DNA of 64,000 bases from Daejeonella lutea. Lineage in GTDB: Bacteria > Bacteroidota > Bacteroidia > Sphingobacteriales > Sphingobacteriaceae. Below the pieces are notes generated by a model. The model had not been told where the DNA came from. It did not search any database and saw only the letters and a list, made by a program, of their open reading frames with translations. The position numbers were made by a program, and so were the translations under genes. This document shows positions 2,007-61,616 of this stretch, one piece after another. The DNA is taken from the NCBI RefSeq assembly GCF_900168015.1, contig NZ_FUYR01000005.1, forward strand, positions 1 through 64,000, in the 5' to 3' direction. The stretch's first letter is position 1; the number at the start of each line of letters is the position of its first letter.

Positions 2007-2021
2007 TGTTAATAATTTGAG

Positions 2022-2131
2022 CCAAGAACCAAGAGCCAGGAATCAAGATCGGCCATATAAAACGTTTAAAAGTACCTGAATAAGCGCTTGTGTCTTGGTT
2101 CTTGGTTCCTAATTCTTGATACTTGATACTA
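2022..2131. repeat. Heptamer-repeat palindrome between convergent genes
   Basis: Left arm 2022-2049 is four 7-mers (CCAAGAA, CCAAGAG, CCAGGAA, TCAAGAT). Right arm 2093-2127 is five 7-mers of complementary type (TCTTGGT twice, TCCTAAT, TCTTGAT, ACTTGAT). The arms are inverted around a centre of about 43 bases. The right arm runs into the TAG stop codon of the minus-strand receptor gene (2129-2131). It could fold into a two-way terminator-like hairpin. Confidence 0.75.
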
Positions 2132-14325: not shown

Positions 14326-14382
14326 TTTGGAAGCCTTTTCAAAGAATGATGGCAGACAGATACGGGAAAAAGGGTGAAGTTG

Positions 14383-14536
14383 TTCGACCGCGCTTCGAGT
14401 GTTGTTCGACTGAGCTTCGACAAAACACCCCTCCAGTCGAACAACACTCGAACAACACTCGAAGAAAAGCCGAACACTTCCCGAACGCTTCCCGAACCTG
14501 TCTCGAACCTGTCTCGAAGAACTGTCGAACAAAGCA
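14383..14536. repeat. Inverted array of 11-bp repeats (TTCG / CGAA units)
   Basis: TTCG occurs at 14383, 14394, 14405 and 14416, exactly 11 bases apart. After a short centre, CGAA occurs at 14438, 14449, 14460, 14471, 14482, 14493, 14504, 14515 and 14526, again exactly 11 apart. The seven bases between vary, with neighbouring units often identical (CAACACT twice, CCTGTCT twice). It is an inverted-arm array like the 7-bp elements but with an 11-bp period. It leaves spurious open frames in several directions. Confidence 0.8.
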
Positions 14537-15290: not shown

Positions 15291-15356
15291 GAGACTTCTT
15301 TTTCGCAACGACTCGCATATCATCCAGACACTCAACTCATAAAACCGGTCTGCCGC

Positions 15357-15454
15357 TTTCAACTTTCACCTTTCAACTCTCAACCGTCAACTCTCAACAG
15401 TCAACTGTCAACCGTCAACCGTCAACTGTCAACTGTCAACCGTCAACTGTCCAC
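15357..15454. repeat. Array of 14 heptamers, consensus nnTCAAC
   Basis: Fourteen exact 7-base units run without a gap from 15357 to 15454 (TTTCAAC, TTTCACC, TTTCAAC, TCTCAAC, CGTCAAC, and so on to TGTCCAC). Positions 3-7 are nearly fixed and the first two vary. The last base is also the first base of the rseP stop codon (CTA on the plus strand). Confidence 0.9.
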
Positions 15455-16782
15455 TAATTAATTACGTGCTTAATAATATCATTCCCAAACACAAACACCA
15501 TTAAGGTAATAAGGATCACGAATCCCACCATTTGTGCGCGTTCCATAAACTTGTCACCAAGCGGCTTGCCTTTAACCATTTCGATAAGGAGGAAAATTGC
15601 ATGCCCGCCATCAAGCGCCGGGATAGGTAAAAGATTCATCAGCGCAAGTGCCATAGAAAGTAATCCTACAAGGCTCCAGAACTTAACCCAGTTAACGGTA
15701 GACCCGAACATGGTTGCGATACCTATAGGTCCTGTAAAGGCCTTATTAGCCTTAACCTGACCGGATGCTACTTTACCAAGACCTTTTGCATTATCCATAA
15801 AGGAACCCCATGCGCGAGACGCACCTACAGGCAGGGATTCCAAGAATCCGTATTCTACAGTTTCCAGGGGGATGTCATGATACAGCGGGATATAAACTCC
15901 AACAGTACCTTCAGGGGTAACTTTGGTTGGAATCTGAACAGTTTTATTGTCTCTTGCTACTGTAATGGCGACCTGCTTACCTTTGTTCGCAACAACTATC
16001 TGCTTGAATTCGTCATAAAACGTAACTGGAGTATTATTGATCGCCAGGATACTGTCCCCTAATTTGACCCCTGCTTTCTCTGCATTTCCACCGGGCTCAA
16101 CCATCGAAATTCCGGAAATTTTTACACGCGGTTCTACAAACTGCCCGATGCCCAGATCTGATACTTTCTCAAGAACATCTCCCGGAACGTGAATATTTTT
16201 AGTCTCTTCGCCACGCTTAACAGTAAGTTCAGTATTACCCAGCAATACTTTTGAGCTCGTCAGTTCTTCAAAGCGCTTTACAGGCTTGCCGTTCACCTCG
16301 GTGATACGGTCGCCATTCTGCAAGCCAATTTCACGGCCAATTATCCCTGGTGCTATGCCATAAGGAATTTTATCATTCGGTACGAATGTCTCGCCATTGC
16401 TTAAAGTAAGCATCCAGAATATGAAAATACCAAGGACAATATTCACAGTTACACCGCCAAGCATGACAATTAGTCGCTGCCATGCCGGTTTGGAACGGAA
16501 CTCCCAGGGCTGCGGGGGACCCGATAATTGTTCAGTGTCCATCGATTCGTCGATCATACCGGATATCTTCACGTAGCCTCCAAGAGGAAGCCATCCAATA
16601 CCGTATTCACAACCTTTATAATTGAAGCTGACTAATTTAAATCCCCAGGCATCAAAGAAGAGATAGAATTTCTCTACCCGAATGCCAAAAGCACGGGCGG
16701 CTAAAAAGTGCCCTGCTTCGTGTAATATGATTAAAATTGATAACCCAAGTAACAGCTGACCTGTCATTACTAATCCATCCAT
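15454..16782 (-). CDS. rseP: RseP-type site-2 zinc protease (M50)
   Basis: A 442-residue intramembrane protease. HEAGH near residue 21 lies in the first membrane segment; two PDZ domains follow in the middle (about residues 140-215 and 220-290); the C-terminal membrane segments carry NLLPIPALDGGH, the third zinc ligand region. In other bacteria it cuts anti-sigma factors or signal peptides within the membrane. The gene is 29 bases from dxr and probably co-transcribed. The TAG stop abuts a 14-unit heptamer array. Confidence 0.92.
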   Translation of the reverse strand: MDGLVMTGQLLLGLSILIILHEAGHFLAARAFGIRVEKFYLFFDAWGFKLVSFNYKGCEYGIGWLPLGGYVKISGMIDESMDTEQLSGPPQPWEFRSKPAWQRLIVMLGGVTVNIVLGIFIFWMLTLSNGETFVPNDKIPYGIAPGIIGREIGLQNGDRITEVNGKPVKRFEELTSSKVLLGNTELTVKRGEETKNIHVPGDVLEKVSDLGIGQFVEPRVKISGISMVEPGGNAEKAGVKLGDSILAINNTPVTFYDEFKQIVVANKGKQVAITVARDNKTVQIPTKVTPEGTVGVYIPLYHDIPLETVEYGFLESLPVGASRAWGSFMDNAKGLGKVASGQVKANKAFTGPIGIATMFGSTVNWVKFWSLVGLLSMALALMNLLPIPALDGGHAIFLLIEMVKGKPLGDKFMERAQMVGFVILITLMVFVFGNDIIKHVIN

Positions 16783-21197: not shown

Positions 21198-21198
21198 G

Positions 21199-21233
21199 GT
21201 GACAGTGGACAGTTGACGGTTGACAGTTGACTA
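21199..21233. repeat. Five heptamers (TTGACAG family) between two glycosyltransferase genes
   Basis: Units GTGACAG, TGGACAG, TTGACGG, TTGACAG and TTGACTA fill the complete gap. The last unit contains the stop codon (CTA, read TAG on the minus strand) of the upstream gene, and the first begins 2 bases from the start codon of the next. Confidence 0.85.
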
Positions 21234-22187: not shown

Positions 22188-22222
22188 GTTGACGGTTGAC
22201 GGTTGACGGTTGACAGGGGACG
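22188..22222. repeat. Heptamer tract GTTGACG/GTTGACA
   Basis: Units GTTGACG three times, GTTGACA and GGGGACG, followed by a decayed continuation (TTGACAG, GTTAACAG) to about 22243. It starts 7 bases upstream of the glycosyltransferase start codon, inside its presumed 5' region. No matching inverted arm is visible downstream. Confidence 0.8.
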
Positions 22223-29663: not shown

Positions 29664-29822
29664 TAAGAATCAAAAATACAAATTAAGTTGAACTATCAAC
29701 TTTTATACTGTCAGATATTTGAAACGGTTTGTTAGTTGACAGGTGACTGTTGACGGTTGACAGCGGTGAGGCCGTTAAATAAATACTTGTTGACTTAATA
29801 ATTAAGACCGCGTGGCCCAACT

Positions 29823-29830
29823 TAGCTTTG
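29823..29830 (+). promoter_or_regulatory. Promoter -7 box of the four-helix-bundle gene
   Basis: TAGCTTTG matches the Bacteroidota -7 consensus TAnnTTTG and lies 22 bases before the start codon. No -33 TTG is seen at normal spacing. It suggests that the gene has its own promoter inside the flanking arms. Confidence 0.45.
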
Positions 29831-29852
29831 ATTTTCAAACTAAATAAGTCGT

Positions 29853-30203
29853 ATGGGTGTAGTAGCTACAAAATCATATTCATTTGCCCTCGAGGTAATT
29901 GAAATTCACAGGCATTTGTTAGAAACGAAGAAAGAATATGTCTTATCTAAACAATTACTTAGAAGTGGAACTGCTATTGGAGCTTTAATAAAGGAGGCGG
30001 AGCACGCGCAGTCGAGGGCTGATTTCCTTCACAAAATGAATATAGCCTTAAAAGAGGCGAATGAGACGGAGTATTGGCTTATGTTACTCAAAGACAGCAA
30101 CAACATCGACAAGGAAAGATATAACAAAATAATTGCACCTTGTAAATCAATCCTACGCCTGCTTATATCTATTGTAAAGAGCACAAAATCCAATCTTAAA
30201 TAA
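29853..30203 (+). CDS. Four-helix-bundle protein (S23 / 23S rRNA intervening-sequence family)
   Basis: A 116-residue, all-helical, basic protein. The segments FALEVIEIHRHL, YVLSKQLLRSGTAIGALIKEAEHAQSRADFLHKM and ALKEANETEYWLMLL are the hallmark of the S23 four-helix-bundle family, first seen as ORFs inside 23S rRNA intervening sequences and related in fold to the Avd protein of diversity-generating retroelements. Its role is unknown; nucleic-acid binding is suspected from the basic surface of homologues. Here it stands alone between two 28-base inverted heptamer arms, next to no rRNA or reverse transcriptase. Confidence 0.88.
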   Translation: MGVVATKSYSFALEVIEIHRHLLETKKEYVLSKQLLRSGTAIGALIKEAEHAQSRADFLHKMNIALKEANETEYWLMLLKDSNNIDKERYNKIIAPCKSILRLLISIVKSTKSNLK

Positions 30204-30286
30204 TTATTAATCGATAATAATTGTCAACTGTCAACAGTCAACTGTCAACTTATTAAAATTCATTTTCAATTTTAACACGGTATCCG

Positions 30287-32610: not shown

Positions 32611-32915
32611 GATTGTCAGGACTAGGATTAGTAGGATGATGGGATTATAGGATTATAAAGCGGAATCGGAATAGGATGCATAGGATTATAGGATTCATAG
32701 GATGGCAAAGCGGAATAGGAATAGGATTAGTAGGATTATAGGATTCATAGGATGGCAAAGCGGAATAGGAATAGGATGCGTAGGATATCGGACAGGATTT
32801 ATCGGATTATAGGATTTGTGTGGTTAAGAATCTAAAGAGTAATTCGAATGTTAGCACCCTCAGATCTTGATACTTGATACCTGATACCTGATACTTGATA
32901 CCTGATACTTGATAC
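32608..32915. repeat. Repeat-filled gap between hisD and hisC: 50-bp tandem plus heptamers
   Basis: From the hisD stop onward, TAGGAT-type units continue to about 32815. Within this a 50-base unit starting CGGAAT(A/C)GGAATAGGAT is repeated at 32661 and 32711 and partly at 32761. A second array of seven exact 7-mers (TTGATAC or CTGATAC) covers 32867-32915, ending 10 bases before the hisC start. No gene is present. The operon otherwise has tight spacing, so this is an insertion-like interruption. Confidence 0.85.
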
Positions 32916-37319: not shown

Positions 37320-37922
37320 ATGAAGATTGATTTTGATAAAAGCAACGGACTCGTTCCGGTGATCATCCAGGACGAAAAAACCCTTGAGGTGTTGATGCTT
37401 GGCTATATGAATGAAGCTGCATATCAAAAAACTTCGTCGGAGAACAAAGTCACTTTCTTTTCGAGAACAAAAAACCGCCTATGGACCAAGGGTGAAGAGA
37501 GCGGCAATTTTTTGCACGTAATTTCAATCAAAGAAGATTGTGATAATGACACGCTTCTCATCAAAGTAAAACCGGAAGGGCCAACTTGCCATACCGGTTC
37601 CAGAAGCTGCTTTAATACGGAATACAATCAAAACTTCATTTTTGAACTTGAGAATATCATCCATGACCGATACACTAATCCAGTCGAAGGCTCCTATATA
37701 AACAAGCTTCGTGGAAAAGGTATCAACAAGATCGCTCAAAAGGTTGGGGAAGAAGGTGTAGAAACCGTTATAGCTGCCCTCAACGAAACAGAGCATGACT
37801 TCGTCAACGAGGTTTCCGATTTGGTTTTCCACCTGTTCGTACTTATGAAAGAAAAAAATGTTAACCTGGACACAATCGCAAAAAATCTTGCTGCGAGACA
37901 CTCCGCAAAAGTTGACAGTTGA
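37320..37922 (+). CDS. hisIE: Bifunctional phosphoribosyl-AMP cyclohydrolase / phosphoribosyl-ATP pyrophosphatase
   Basis: A 200-residue fusion. The HisI part (about 1-105) has MLGYMNEAAY, RTKNRLWTKGEESGN and the zinc Cys motif GPTCHTGSRSCF. The HisE part (about 110-200) has YINKLRGKGINKIAQKVGEEGVETVIAA, the MazG-like metal site. It is the last his gene. Its final codons and TGA stop (37911-37922) are formed by the first heptamers of a GTTGACA array, so the last residues KVDS derive from repeat. Confidence 0.95.
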   Translation: MKIDFDKSNGLVPVIIQDEKTLEVLMLGYMNEAAYQKTSSENKVTFFSRTKNRLWTKGEESGNFLHVISIKEDCDNDTLLIKVKPEGPTCHTGSRSCFNTEYNQNFIFELENIIHDRYTNPVEGSYINKLRGKGINKIAQKVGEEGVETVIAALNETEHDFVNEVSDLVFHLFVLMKEKNVNLDTIAKNLAARHSAKVDS

Positions 37923-37952
37923 GAGTTGACAGTTGACAATTGAGAGTTGAGA
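37911..37952. repeat. Six heptamers at the hisIE stop codon
   Basis: GTTGACA, GTTGAGA, GTTGACA, GTTGACA, ATTGAGA and GTTGAGA, exactly in phase. The hisIE stop TGA is inside units 2-3 of the array. No inverted arm is evident before the WD40 gene at 38032. Confidence 0.9.
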
Positions 37953-38031
37953 ATGGCGAGTGGCCTGCCTGCCTCCAGGGGTACAGCTTGTTCAGCTATT
38001 AAGATCGTGAACGTAATATCTAATTCATCCG

Positions 38032-38943
38032 ATGATTGAAGTAAAGCTTTTAGCGACCTTTTCGGGCCATCAGAATCCAATATTCACCGCTGAAAATTCA
38101 CAAAAACCCGAAATTTTATTTACGGCCGGAAATGATAAAGGTGTGGTGGAATGGAGTCTGAAAACCATGAGCTTTATAAAAGTCATGTTCCCTGTCAGTT
38201 CATCCGTGTACACCCTGCATTGCCCCTCTGGCCAGCCCTATTTGATAGCAGGCGAAAGAAACGGCCAGGTTAGTGTATTTGATTTTACAGAACAACGGGT
38301 AACGCAGGTCCTGCGTCATCACAAGCTTCCTGTATTTGACATTAAAACAGTGAGCGGTAAGGATGAGATGCTGGTAGCGTCCGAAGACGGGACCGTGTCC
38401 GTCTGGGATGTGCAAAGCTTGAAAATGCTTTACAACTTTAAAGTTTCATCAGATACAGTGCGTGTTATCAGTATAAGTCCCGACCAAAAGTCAGTCGCAT
38501 TTGGGTGTAAAGACAACAAAGTCAGGATATATAAGCTTGAAGACTATAGCCTGGTAGCTGAGCTCAGTGAACATACACTTCCAGTTACATCCCTCCAATT
38601 CTCCCCTGATGGCAGGTTCCTGTTGTCGGGAAGCAGGGATGCTCAGCTCAAGATATGGGATACCACAGACTACAGGCTCACTCAAAATGTCGCCGCACAT
38701 TTGTTTTCCATATATAGCATAGCATTTCATCCGGAGTTGCCCTTCGTTGCCACCGCAAGCAGAGACAAAAGCATAAAGATTTGGGATGCTGACAATTTTA
38801 ACCTTAAAAAAACTATCAGTTTTGAGAAGGGCTACGAGATGCATCGACTTTCTGTCAATAAGATTATTTGGGATATGGAGAACAGGCTGATATCTGTCGG
38901 AGACGATAAATTAGTAAAGGTTTGGGACGTTTTGTGTGAGTGA
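38032..38943 (+). CDS. WD40-repeat protein
   Basis: A 303-residue cytoplasmic beta-propeller of about seven blades. Several blades end in the typical WD pair (VSVWDVQSL, LKIWDTTDY, IKIWDADNF, VKVWDVLCE) and carry LLSGSRD or TASRDK strands. There is no signal peptide or extra domain. It is a likely protein-interaction scaffold; partners are unknown. The TGA stop is followed directly by a heptamer palindrome. Confidence 0.88.
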   Translation: MIEVKLLATFSGHQNPIFTAENSQKPEILFTAGNDKGVVEWSLKTMSFIKVMFPVSSSVYTLHCPSGQPYLIAGERNGQVSVFDFTEQRVTQVLRHHKLPVFDIKTVSGKDEMLVASEDGTVSVWDVQSLKMLYNFKVSSDTVRVISISPDQKSVAFGCKDNKVRIYKLEDYSLVAELSEHTLPVTSLQFSPDGRFLLSGSRDAQLKIWDTTDYRLTQNVAAHLFSIYSIAFHPELPFVATASRDKSIKIWDADNFNLKKTISFEKGYEMHRLSVNKIIWDMENRLISVGDDKLVKVWDVLCE

Positions 38944-39047
38944 TACGTTATACGTATTACGTTATACGTTATACGTTATGGCTTCCGACTAATCACTATT
39001 TACCTATCCGATATGCAACGTAATACGTACAACGTAATACGTACAAC
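38944..39047. repeat. TTATACG heptamer palindrome exactly filling a stop-to-stop gap
   Basis: Left arm (about 38947-38975): TTATACG, TATTACG, TTATACG, TTATACG. Right arm (about 39016-39047) reads on the other strand as TTGTACG, TATTACG, TTGTACG, TATTACG. It begins at the base after the WD40 stop codon and ends at the base before the stop codon of the convergent NlpC/P60 gene. Confidence 0.85.
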
Positions 39048-39993: not shown

Positions 39994-40461
39994 ATGAAGA
40001 GCTCAGAGAATATAGAAAGAATTTTAATAGCTGTTGAAGACAGTCCTTATTCAGATCAGGCGATTCAGTATGGCATGATGCTGGCTAAGAAAATGGGTTC
40101 AAAAATTGCATTTGTTCATGCCGACGAGATTCCGGTAAATACCCCCTTTATTGCTGATCCCATGCTAAGCGAAACCCCGTTAATGATCCCTGAAATGATG
40201 GAAGTACAAGAGGAAGCCAGCAAAAGCCTTTTCAAAAGAATACAGGAGCAGTATGGAGACGATATAGAAATTTCGAAATACATCCGGGTAGGTCGCGCCC
40301 AGGATGAGATCCTTGCAGTTGCCGACGAGTATAAAGCCGACCTGATAATTTTAGGAACCCACGGCAGAACTGGCCTCGATCATTTTATCTCAGGGAGCGT
40401 TTCGGCAAGTGTTGCAAAAAGAGCGAAATGTCCGGTGCTGATTATTCCGAAGCGGGAGTAG
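39994..40461 (+). CDS. Universal stress protein (UspA family)
   Basis: A 155-residue single Usp domain. It has RILIAVEDSPYSDQAIQYG at the N-terminus and the ATP-binding signature GTHGRTGLDHFISGSVSASV near residues 127-146, with VLIIPKRE at the end. The ATP-binding type is therefore likely. The gene is monocistronic between heptamer elements; its TAG stop is immediately followed by a CAAGTAT heptamer array. Confidence 0.9.
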   Translation: MKSSENIERILIAVEDSPYSDQAIQYGMMLAKKMGSKIAFVHADEIPVNTPFIADPMLSETPLMIPEMMEVQEEASKSLFKRIQEQYGDDIEISKYIRVGRAQDEILAVADEYKADLIILGTHGRTGLDHFISGSVSASVAKRAKCPVLIIPKRE

Positions 40462-40568
40462 CAAGTATCAGGTATCAAGAATCGAGATTCGAGGAAGATT
40501 AACTTACACATGAAATTTAGCTATGCAAGATACACCAGCCTTGATACTTGATTCTTGATACTTGATAC
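40462..40568. repeat. CAAGTAT/TTGATAC heptamer palindrome
   Basis: Left arm 40462-40489 (CAAGTAT, CAGGTAT, CAAGAAT, CGAGATT) begins at the base after the uspA stop. Right arm 40541-40568 (TTGATAC, TTGATTC, TTGATAC, TTGATAC) is its inverse. The TTGATTC unit pairs with GAATC of the left arm, so the variant is kept in both arms. Confidence 0.85.
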
Positions 40569-43122: not shown

Positions 43123-43274
43123 GTATCAGGTATCAGGTATCAGGTATCAAGTATCAGGTATCAAGTATCAGGTATCAAGTATCAGGTATCAGGTATCAAG
43201 ACTAACGTACCCAGCGGTAAATCGTTTTTATTTACAAACTCCAAATCTTGCTACTTGATACTTGCTACGTGATA
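43123..43274. repeat. Eleven GTATCAG/GTATCAA heptamers with inverted right arm
   Basis: Units run exactly from 43123 to 43199 (77 bases). Position 7 alternates between G and A in an irregular pattern (G G G A G A G A G G A). The right arm (43247-43274: CTTGCTA, CTTGATA, CTTGCTA, CGTGATA) is inverted and shorter, so the arms are unequal in unit number. The element begins 5 bases after the ftsE stop. Confidence 0.9.
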
Positions 43275-43332
43275 CTCTATCTGACACTCTGACGCATTTC
43301 AGCTTTTGGCAAAAAAATTGTCATAGGCAGGT

Positions 43333-57000: not shown

Positions 57001-57009
57001 TAGAGAAGC

Positions 57010-57037
57010 TGACAGTTGACAGTTGACAGTTGACAGC
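57010..57037. repeat. Four TGACAGT heptamers upstream of the KdsC-like gene
   Basis: TGACAGT three times and TGACAGC, exactly in phase, starting 9 bases upstream of the start codon. It lies in the gap between iscX and the phosphatase gene. No inverted partner is evident in this gap. Confidence 0.85.
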
Positions 57038-61438: not shown

Positions 61439-61478
61439 TTCTAACAACAATGTTTCTATATTAGAATCATTCTAAATA

Positions 61479-61616
61479 AGTTATACGTTTTACGTTGTAC
61501 GTTCTAAGTGTCTAAACGCTGCACCAGCCGTCAAGGTCTAAAACGTGGTTGTTATACGATTTATAACGCTGCGCTGACCGCCCAGGCGTAAAACGTACAA
61601 CGTAAAACGTATAACT
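61479..61616. repeat. Palindromic element with perfect 25-base inverted arms (TTATACG/TTTTACG)
   Basis: The left arm 61479-61503 is exactly complementary to the right arm 61592-61616. Within the arms the 7-base units TTATACG, TTTTACG and TTGTACG are visible. The centre, about 88 bases, holds further related short segments (TTATACGATTTATAACG). It ends 4 bases before the gdhA stop codon. Confidence 0.9.

What the first reader, a model, noticed from the sequence alone, without database searches (positions are those of the whole stretch)
29735..30249. Four-helix-bundle (S23/Avd-like) gene enclosed by inverted heptamer arms
Seen: two 28-base arms, four heptamers each, inverted and matching at 26 of 28 positions, enclose only a promoter-like box and the 116-residue S23-family gene. 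Established: this family occurs as ORFs in 23S rRNA intervening sequences, and its relative Avd works with retroelement reverse transcriptase. Inference: the protein may be the cargo or mobiliser of the heptamer elements, like a RAYT protein with REP sequences, with the empty elements elsewhere being gene-less derivatives.
Basis: partly seen in the sequence, partly recalled or inferred. Interest (0 to 1): 0.85.

Follow-up and report, generated by a model that had tools for sequence, protein, structure and literature searches.

The report
S23 genes inside clade-specific heptamer elements
Genes for a small ring-forming protein (S23/four-helix bundle) sit, in almost every genome examined, inside a short DNA element bounded by inverted tandem 7-base repeats whose sequence matches the protein's own branch of the family, which suggests that this protein spreads or maintains the unexplained heptamer repeats of many bacteria and that the known insertions in 23S rRNA genes are one case of the same element.

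Summary
In detail: a PF05635/TIGR02436 gene (29853-30203) lies between inverted arms 29735-29762 and 30222-30249, four heptamers each, 26/28 complementary. It is not a local curiosity. Of 99 S23 genes from the genus and class, 88 have such arms (period 7 in 72, 8 in 15). So do most of 79 further Bacteroidota-group loci and 19 of 20 plasmid loci in seven phyla, one of them inside 23S rRNA. Each protein clade has its own heptamer: at unrelated genome positions, proteins at least 65% identical always share it (26/26), those under 50% almost never. The heptamers without the gene are scattered through this genome (143 arrays in 864 kb; 0 and 1 in about 190-kb samples of two S23-less congeners), and 86% match an S23 gene of the same genome. 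Orthologous sites exist empty, with gene-less inverted pairs, or with another heptamer. Y1 transposase is absent here and reverse transcriptase usually is. I infer mobile, IVS-like elements whose pentameric S23 protein recognises its own heptamers, one per subunit. Binding and mobilisation are not shown.

The parts
29735..29762 (+). 5' arm: four GTTGACR-type heptamers
29763..29852 (+). leader between 5' arm and start codon (inside the element)
   Evidence: function not tested
29853..30203 (+). S23/four-helix-bundle protein gene, 116 aa, PF05635/TIGR02436
30222..30249 (-). 3' arm: four inverted GTTGAC heptamers
2019..2130 (.). gene-less inverted pair of AAGAACCA/AAGAGCCA heptamers (family of S23 gene L005), followed by CTTGATA (family of L001)
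15356..15455 (-). gene-less array of about 14 GTTGAC/GTTGAG heptamers
21198..21231 (+). gene-less GTTGAC array
22188..22214 (+). gene-less GTTGACG array
32866..32915 (-). gene-less CTTGATA (GTATCAR) array, family of S23 gene L001
37237..37312 (.). gene-less inverted pair, GTTGCC/GTTGTC-type heptamers
37910..37964 (+). gene-less GTTGAC/GTTGAG array
38940..39047 (.). gene-less inverted pair of ACGTTAT heptamers (family of S23 genes L002/L009)
40457..40568 (.). gene-less inverted pair of GTATCAR heptamers
43123..43276 (.). gene-less inverted pair of GTATCAR heptamers (11 copies on the left)
57007..57036 (+). gene-less GTTGACA array
61476..61615 (.). gene-less inverted pair of ACGTTNT heptamers

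Best explanation
The window feature is one member of a widespread class of small mobile elements, relatives of the 23S rRNA intervening sequences. The element is: tandem heptamer arm, short leader, S23 gene, inverted copy of the arm (about 0.4-0.6 kb in all). SHOWN: S23 genes carry such arms across many phyla; heptamer sequence and even period (7 or 8) follow the protein's phylogeny, also at unrelated genome positions; matching gene-less arrays and inverted pairs are dispersed in the same genome; orthologous sites differ between species in presence and family; S23 genes are under purifying selection. INFERRED: the S23 protein, a homopentameric ring by homology, binds its own heptamers, one per subunit, probably as single-stranded nucleic acid, so that an arm of 4-5 heptamers fills a ring and two arms can be brought together. 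This recognition lets the element and, in trans, its gene-less derivatives spread. The chemistry comes from host enzymes, because S23 has no known catalytic site.
For: Arms at 88 of 99 S23 genes of genus and class; 79 loci across Bacteroidota, Ignavibacteriae and Balneolaceae: mean score 16.2 against 9.2 for displaced windows, best period 7 in 77 of 79; 46 further Bacteroidia genes, period 7 in 36 and 8 in 5; 19 of 20 plasmid loci in seven phyla. Specificity: non-orthologous pairs at 65% identity or more share the heptamer in 26 of 26, pairs under 50% in 2-4%; Mantel 0 of 500; heptamer families need 14 changes on the protein tree, shuffles at least 45; period needs 7, shuffles at least 11. Dispersal: 143 period-7 arrays in 864 kb, other periods 5-13 give 0-11, S23-less congeners 0 and 1; 123 of 143 match own S23 arms, 24% for permuted units. 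GTTGAC counts are highest where GTTGAC-type S23 genes occur. Empty sites. An inverted heptamer pair predicted an S23 gene in a Nostoc plasmid, and it was there. Gene-less pairs share AGCGTTTAG, 10 of 33 against 0.10 expected. dN/dS median 0.10. Solved homologues 2gsc and 2rld have five chains; X. campestris S23p is a homopentameric torus (PMC4990558, citing Lin 2006).
Against: No binding or transposition data. No target-site duplication was established. Several genomes with 1-8 S23 genes showed no dispersed arrays in 20-60 kb samples, so dispersal is not automatic. G011 and G007 hold 18 and 14 GTTGAC pairs without a GTTGAC-type S23 gene having been found there (not all their S23 genes were fetched). 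About 14% of arrays match no S23 gene of the genome. In Coxiella the IVS-encoded S23p seems not to be made (PMC4990558). No per-residue specificity signal was found.
Confidence: 0.6

Rival explanations
1. S23 is a sequence-specific RNA- or DNA-binding regulator. The heptamers are its binding sites in leaders and intergenic regions, the arms around its own gene serve autoregulation, and the arrays were spread by other means and kept for regulation.
For: Protein-heptamer co-divergence needs only binding. Polarity is fixed: G exceeds C in the coding-strand 5' arm in 81 of 88. MacGregor proposed translational regulation for TAACTGA repeats (PMC4679880).
Against: It does not explain presence/absence at orthologous sites, replacement by another heptamer at one site, insertion in 23S rRNA and between cas6 and cas4, nrdB and nrdA, hsdS and hsdR, or the inverted arms on both sides.
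Confidence: 0.2
2. Passenger model: heptamer arrays grow by replication slippage or template switching, and S23 genes are merely carried between them or insert into existing arrays.
For: Arrays vary in length, form composites and shift gradually between related heptamers.
Against: Period is 7 or 8 by protein clade, not by genome; S23-less congeners lack arrays; other periods are nearly absent; slippage gives no inverted arms and no shared internal motif; S23 is the cargo in 5 of 6 widely spaced pairs.
Confidence: 0.1
3. The chemistry is done by a Y1 (RAYT/IS200) transposase or by a reverse transcriptase acting with S23, as Avd does in diversity-generating retroelements.
For: Avd is an S23 relative that works with an RT (established knowledge); G000 has one RT.
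Against: No Y1_Tnp in G000, the genome with most arrays; RVT_1 in only 8 of 31 genomes and absent from G010, G018 and G004, which hold many GTTGAC pairs.
Confidence: 0.07

Closest known systems
23S rRNA intervening sequences (IVS) with an S23 ORF (Leptospira, Coxiella, Azospirillum)
   Same: Same gene family, similar size, inverted termini (28-bp stem in Coxiella) and heptameric repeats GACAGAT before the ORF (PMC4990558). The Azospirillum 23S insertion has heptamer arms.
   Different: The window element lies between protein genes, has gene-less copies of its arms elsewhere, and belongs to a set with many different, protein-specific heptamers.
Dispersed heptamer repeats: cyanobacterial STRRs, TAACTGA (MacGregor 2015), GGGAATC/GGGGAYT in Xanthomonas and Nostoc (Rehm 2015)
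   Same: Intergenic tandem heptamers, sometimes in inverted pairs; four units are the commonest in Xanthomonas (PMC4692102).
   Different: None of the papers found connects them with S23; here heptamer families are tied to S23 genes.
REP/REPIN elements with RAYT
   Same: Dispersed inverted short repeats plus a gene flanked by two of them.
   Different: RAYT is a Y1 HUH enzyme; S23 is not, and this genome has no Y1 gene.
Avd of diversity-generating retroelements
   Same: Same protein superfamily (established knowledge).
   Different: No adjacent RT or template/variable repeat seen; Avd is not known from heptamer arms.

Membership tests
PF05635 / TIGR02436 (S23, four helix bundle protein) | profile match above curated cut-off | tested here: met
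   93.6 bits vs 33.8; 103 bits vs 24
PF05635 / TIGR02436 (S23, four helix bundle protein) | homopentameric ring | not testable with these tools
   close homologue 2rld (E 2e-34) has five chains in the entry; 2gsc likewise
23S rRNA intervening sequence | insertion inside a 23S rRNA gene | tested here: not met
   window element lies between a batA-like gene and hisG; no rRNA match in L007
23S rRNA intervening sequence | complementary termini enclosing an S23 ORF | tested here: met
23S rRNA intervening sequence | excision of the RNA by RNase III | not testable with these tools
   needs RNA data
RAYT/REP system | Y1 (PF01797) transposase | tested here: not met
   gene is PF05635; 0 PF01797 matches in G000
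Diversity-generating retroelement | reverse transcriptase next to Avd | tested here: not met
   no RT among the neighbouring ORFs; RVT_1 in 8 of 31 genomes only, and the one of G000 lies on another contig
MITE / insertion sequence | terminal inverted repeats | tested here: met
MITE / insertion sequence | target-site duplication | tested here: inconclusive
   empty sites found but flanks too diverged to define junctions
MITE / insertion sequence | transposase in the autonomous copy | tested here: not met
   only S23 is enclosed
Cyanobacterial heptamer repeats (STRR) | dispersed tandem heptamers in cyanobacterial genomes | tested here: inconclusive
   arms of Nostoc, Calothrix, Anabaena and Planktothrix S23 genes are tandem heptamers; matching arrays on chromosomes not examined

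The most novel reading that the evidence does not exclude
S23 proteins and heptamers form a protein-repeat recognition code: pentameric rings that read tandem 7-mers (8-mers in one clade), one unit per subunit, and drive a previously unrecognised, phylum-spanning class of mobile elements that generated the STRR, TAACTGA and GGGAATC repeats and the rRNA intervening sequences.
Probability: 0.5. Interest if true: 0.95.

Novelty: new variant of a known kind. Interest (0 to 1): 0.87.

Why it matters
Tandem heptamers are known to be over-represented in bacteria without an explanation (PMC4692102, PMC4679880), and S23 proteins have had no known function (PMC4990558). Linking the two makes both directly testable and gives the 23S rRNA insertions an origin. 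If the recognition code is real, S23 rings would be a natural set of small, orthogonal binders of tandem repeats.

Tried and rejected
One heptamer for all S23 genes: rejected, since GTTGAC flanks only this one of the 11 matches here. RT as general partner: rejected. Y1/RAYT: rejected. Terminator hairpin: unlikely, as the window element lies between divergent genes. Specificity residues: partial correlations up to 0.25 without a significance test, not interpretable. The reversed-pattern control of the genome search is not clean for tandem repeats and was not used. Genome scan with the broad alignment A1 failed; A2 used. Structure alignment failed on a stop codon and was dropped because solved homologues exist. 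An attempt to reach Xanthomonas returned apparently Bacteroidia genomes because the centre genome (a 'Limnohabitans' MAG) seems misassigned; the loci served as a replicate. No phage record matches the L042 protein. Chromosome-wide dispersal in cyanobacteria was not tested.

Full report
Observation. The ORF is a PF05635/TIGR02436 protein. Its nearest solved relative is 2rld, with five chains in the entry.

The association is general in this genome. The genome holds 11 PF05635 matches. Seven others are also enclosed by inverted tandem heptamers about 460-570 bp apart, but with different sequences: GTATCAR (L001), ACGTTNT (L002 and the broken L009), GGCNTTA (L003), AAGAACCA (L005), AGTNATC (L006), CTGAAAN (L010). 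L008 has 8-base units; L004 is weak and L011 is a fragment. Most of these heptamers are also the gene-less arrays elsewhere in the window.

It is general in relatives. Among 100 distinct S23 genes of 31 genomes, 99 had enough flank; 88 have a clear inverted match, with best period 7 in 72, 8 in 15 and 6 in one. Matched arms have a median of 30 nt, about 4.3 units. G exceeds C on the coding strand of the 5' arm in 81 of 88. At 79 loci across Bacteroidota, Ignavibacteriae and Balneolaceae the mean inverted score is 16.2; displaced windows of the same loci give 9.2 (99th percentile 13, maximum 14). The best period is 7 in 77 of 79. A later set of 46 Bacteroidia genes gave period 7 in 36 and 8 in 5. 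On plasmids of Cyanobacteria, Azospirillum, Gemmatirosa, Treponema, Monoglobus, Bernardetia and Chlorohelix, 19 of 20 loci score 15-33 against a control maximum of 14. The Azospirillum one lies inside 23S rRNA, so a classical intervening sequence has the same arms; the Coxiella IVS was reported with a 28-bp stem and GACAGAT heptamers (PMC4990558).

The converse also holds. In about 1.65 Mb of contiguous pieces (some chosen knowing that they hold S23 genes), 5 of 6 inverted heptamer pairs spaced 300-620 bp enclose an S23 gene. In a Nostoc plasmid I searched for GGGAACA and found an inverted pair about 400 bp apart; I then looked, and a four-helix-bundle gene is annotated exactly between.

The heptamer follows the protein. 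Protein identity and arm similarity correlate (Mantel 0 of 500). To exclude simple inheritance of a site, I compared only genes whose flanks are not homologous: 26 of 26 pairs at 65% identity or more share the heptamer, 2-4% of pairs under 50% do. On the protein tree ten heptamer families need 14 changes (shuffles 45 or more) and the period needs 7 (shuffles 11 or more); ten octamer genes form one clade. Related clades have related heptamers (GTTGAC, GTTGAG, CTGAAA). This is the strongest hint of direct recognition, because slippage would not know the protein.

Dispersal follows S23. G000 has 143 period-7 arrays in 864 kb, against 0-11 for other periods from 5 to 13; two S23-less congeners have 0 in 182 kb and 1 in 200 kb. 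Of the 143, 123 match an S23 arm of the genome, against 24% of unit-permuted controls. GTTGAC pairs number 146, 85, 50, 20 and 17 in the five genomes with a GTTGAC-type S23 gene, 18 and 14 in two others, and 5 or fewer elsewhere; GAATTAC behaves similarly. Yet small samples of several S23-bearing genomes contain no arrays, so spread is episodic.

Mobility. At the batA-hisG site, G001 and G006 have no heptamers, G003 has a GTTATAC-type pair without gene, G010, G011 and G012 have GTTGAC pairs without gene, and G002 and G009 have composites. Sites of L001, L002 and L008 are free of an element in G003 or G001. Elsewhere elements split cas6|cas4, nrdB|nrdA and hsdS|hsdR. Gene-less pairs share internal motifs AGCGTTTAG (10 of 33, 0.10 expected) and CTGGGCGGA (4, 0.05 expected) across heptamer families, so they are a structured class. 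I could not define target duplications.

Mechanism. S23 genes evolve under purifying selection (median dN/dS 0.10), so the protein does something. The genome with most arrays has no Y1 transposase, and RT is present in only 8 of 31 genomes. The model I find most likely is that the pentameric ring binds one heptamer per subunit, holds the two arms together and lets host enzymes copy or insert the element and its gene-less relatives. Binding, nucleic-acid form and chemistry are inference.

Novelty. Papers on heptamer repeats (PMC4679880, PMC4692102) and on the Coxiella IVS (PMC4990558) were found; none links heptamers generally to S23. The search covers open-licence PubMed Central only. Because the rRNA intervening sequences share the anatomy, I call this a new variant of a known kind, although its breadth and the apparent recognition code are, as far as I could find, undescribed.

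Noticed in passing
window 32618-32816; L174:3602-3827; L178:8544-8833: A different repeat: TAGGATT-type units in a 50-bp tandem array between hisD and hisC, with similar copies at other places in the genome.
   Followed up: no
window 14379-14518: Tandem 11-base units (TTCGAC../TCGAACAACAC, CCGAACACTTC, CGAACCTGTCT); the genome sample has 11 period-11 arrays.
   Followed up: no
L167:17279-17608, L174:7114-7860, L177:9320-9994: Dispersed several-hundred-base repeat with GTTGAC arrays and a tRNA T-arm-like stretch (GGGTTCAAGTCCCC); one copy continues into 46-bp macro-repeats.
   Followed up: partly
L314, L316 (also L315): In Cyanobacteria and Chloroflexota plasmids an S23 element lies between a helicase-related gene and a DNA methyltransferase or large gene, possibly a repeated insertion point in a defence-like operon.
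   Followed up: no
L298, L305: S23 elements between cas6 and cas4 of type I-D CRISPR operons on two cyanobacterial plasmids, with different heptamers.
   Followed up: partly
L296 (G031): A MAG labelled Limnohabitans carries nine or more S23 matches, and its 'class' search returned apparently Bacteroidia genomes; the label is probably wrong.
   Followed up: partly
L062, L126, L128, L063: Isolated S23 genes outside the main octamer clade have 8- or 6-base arm periods.
   Followed up: no
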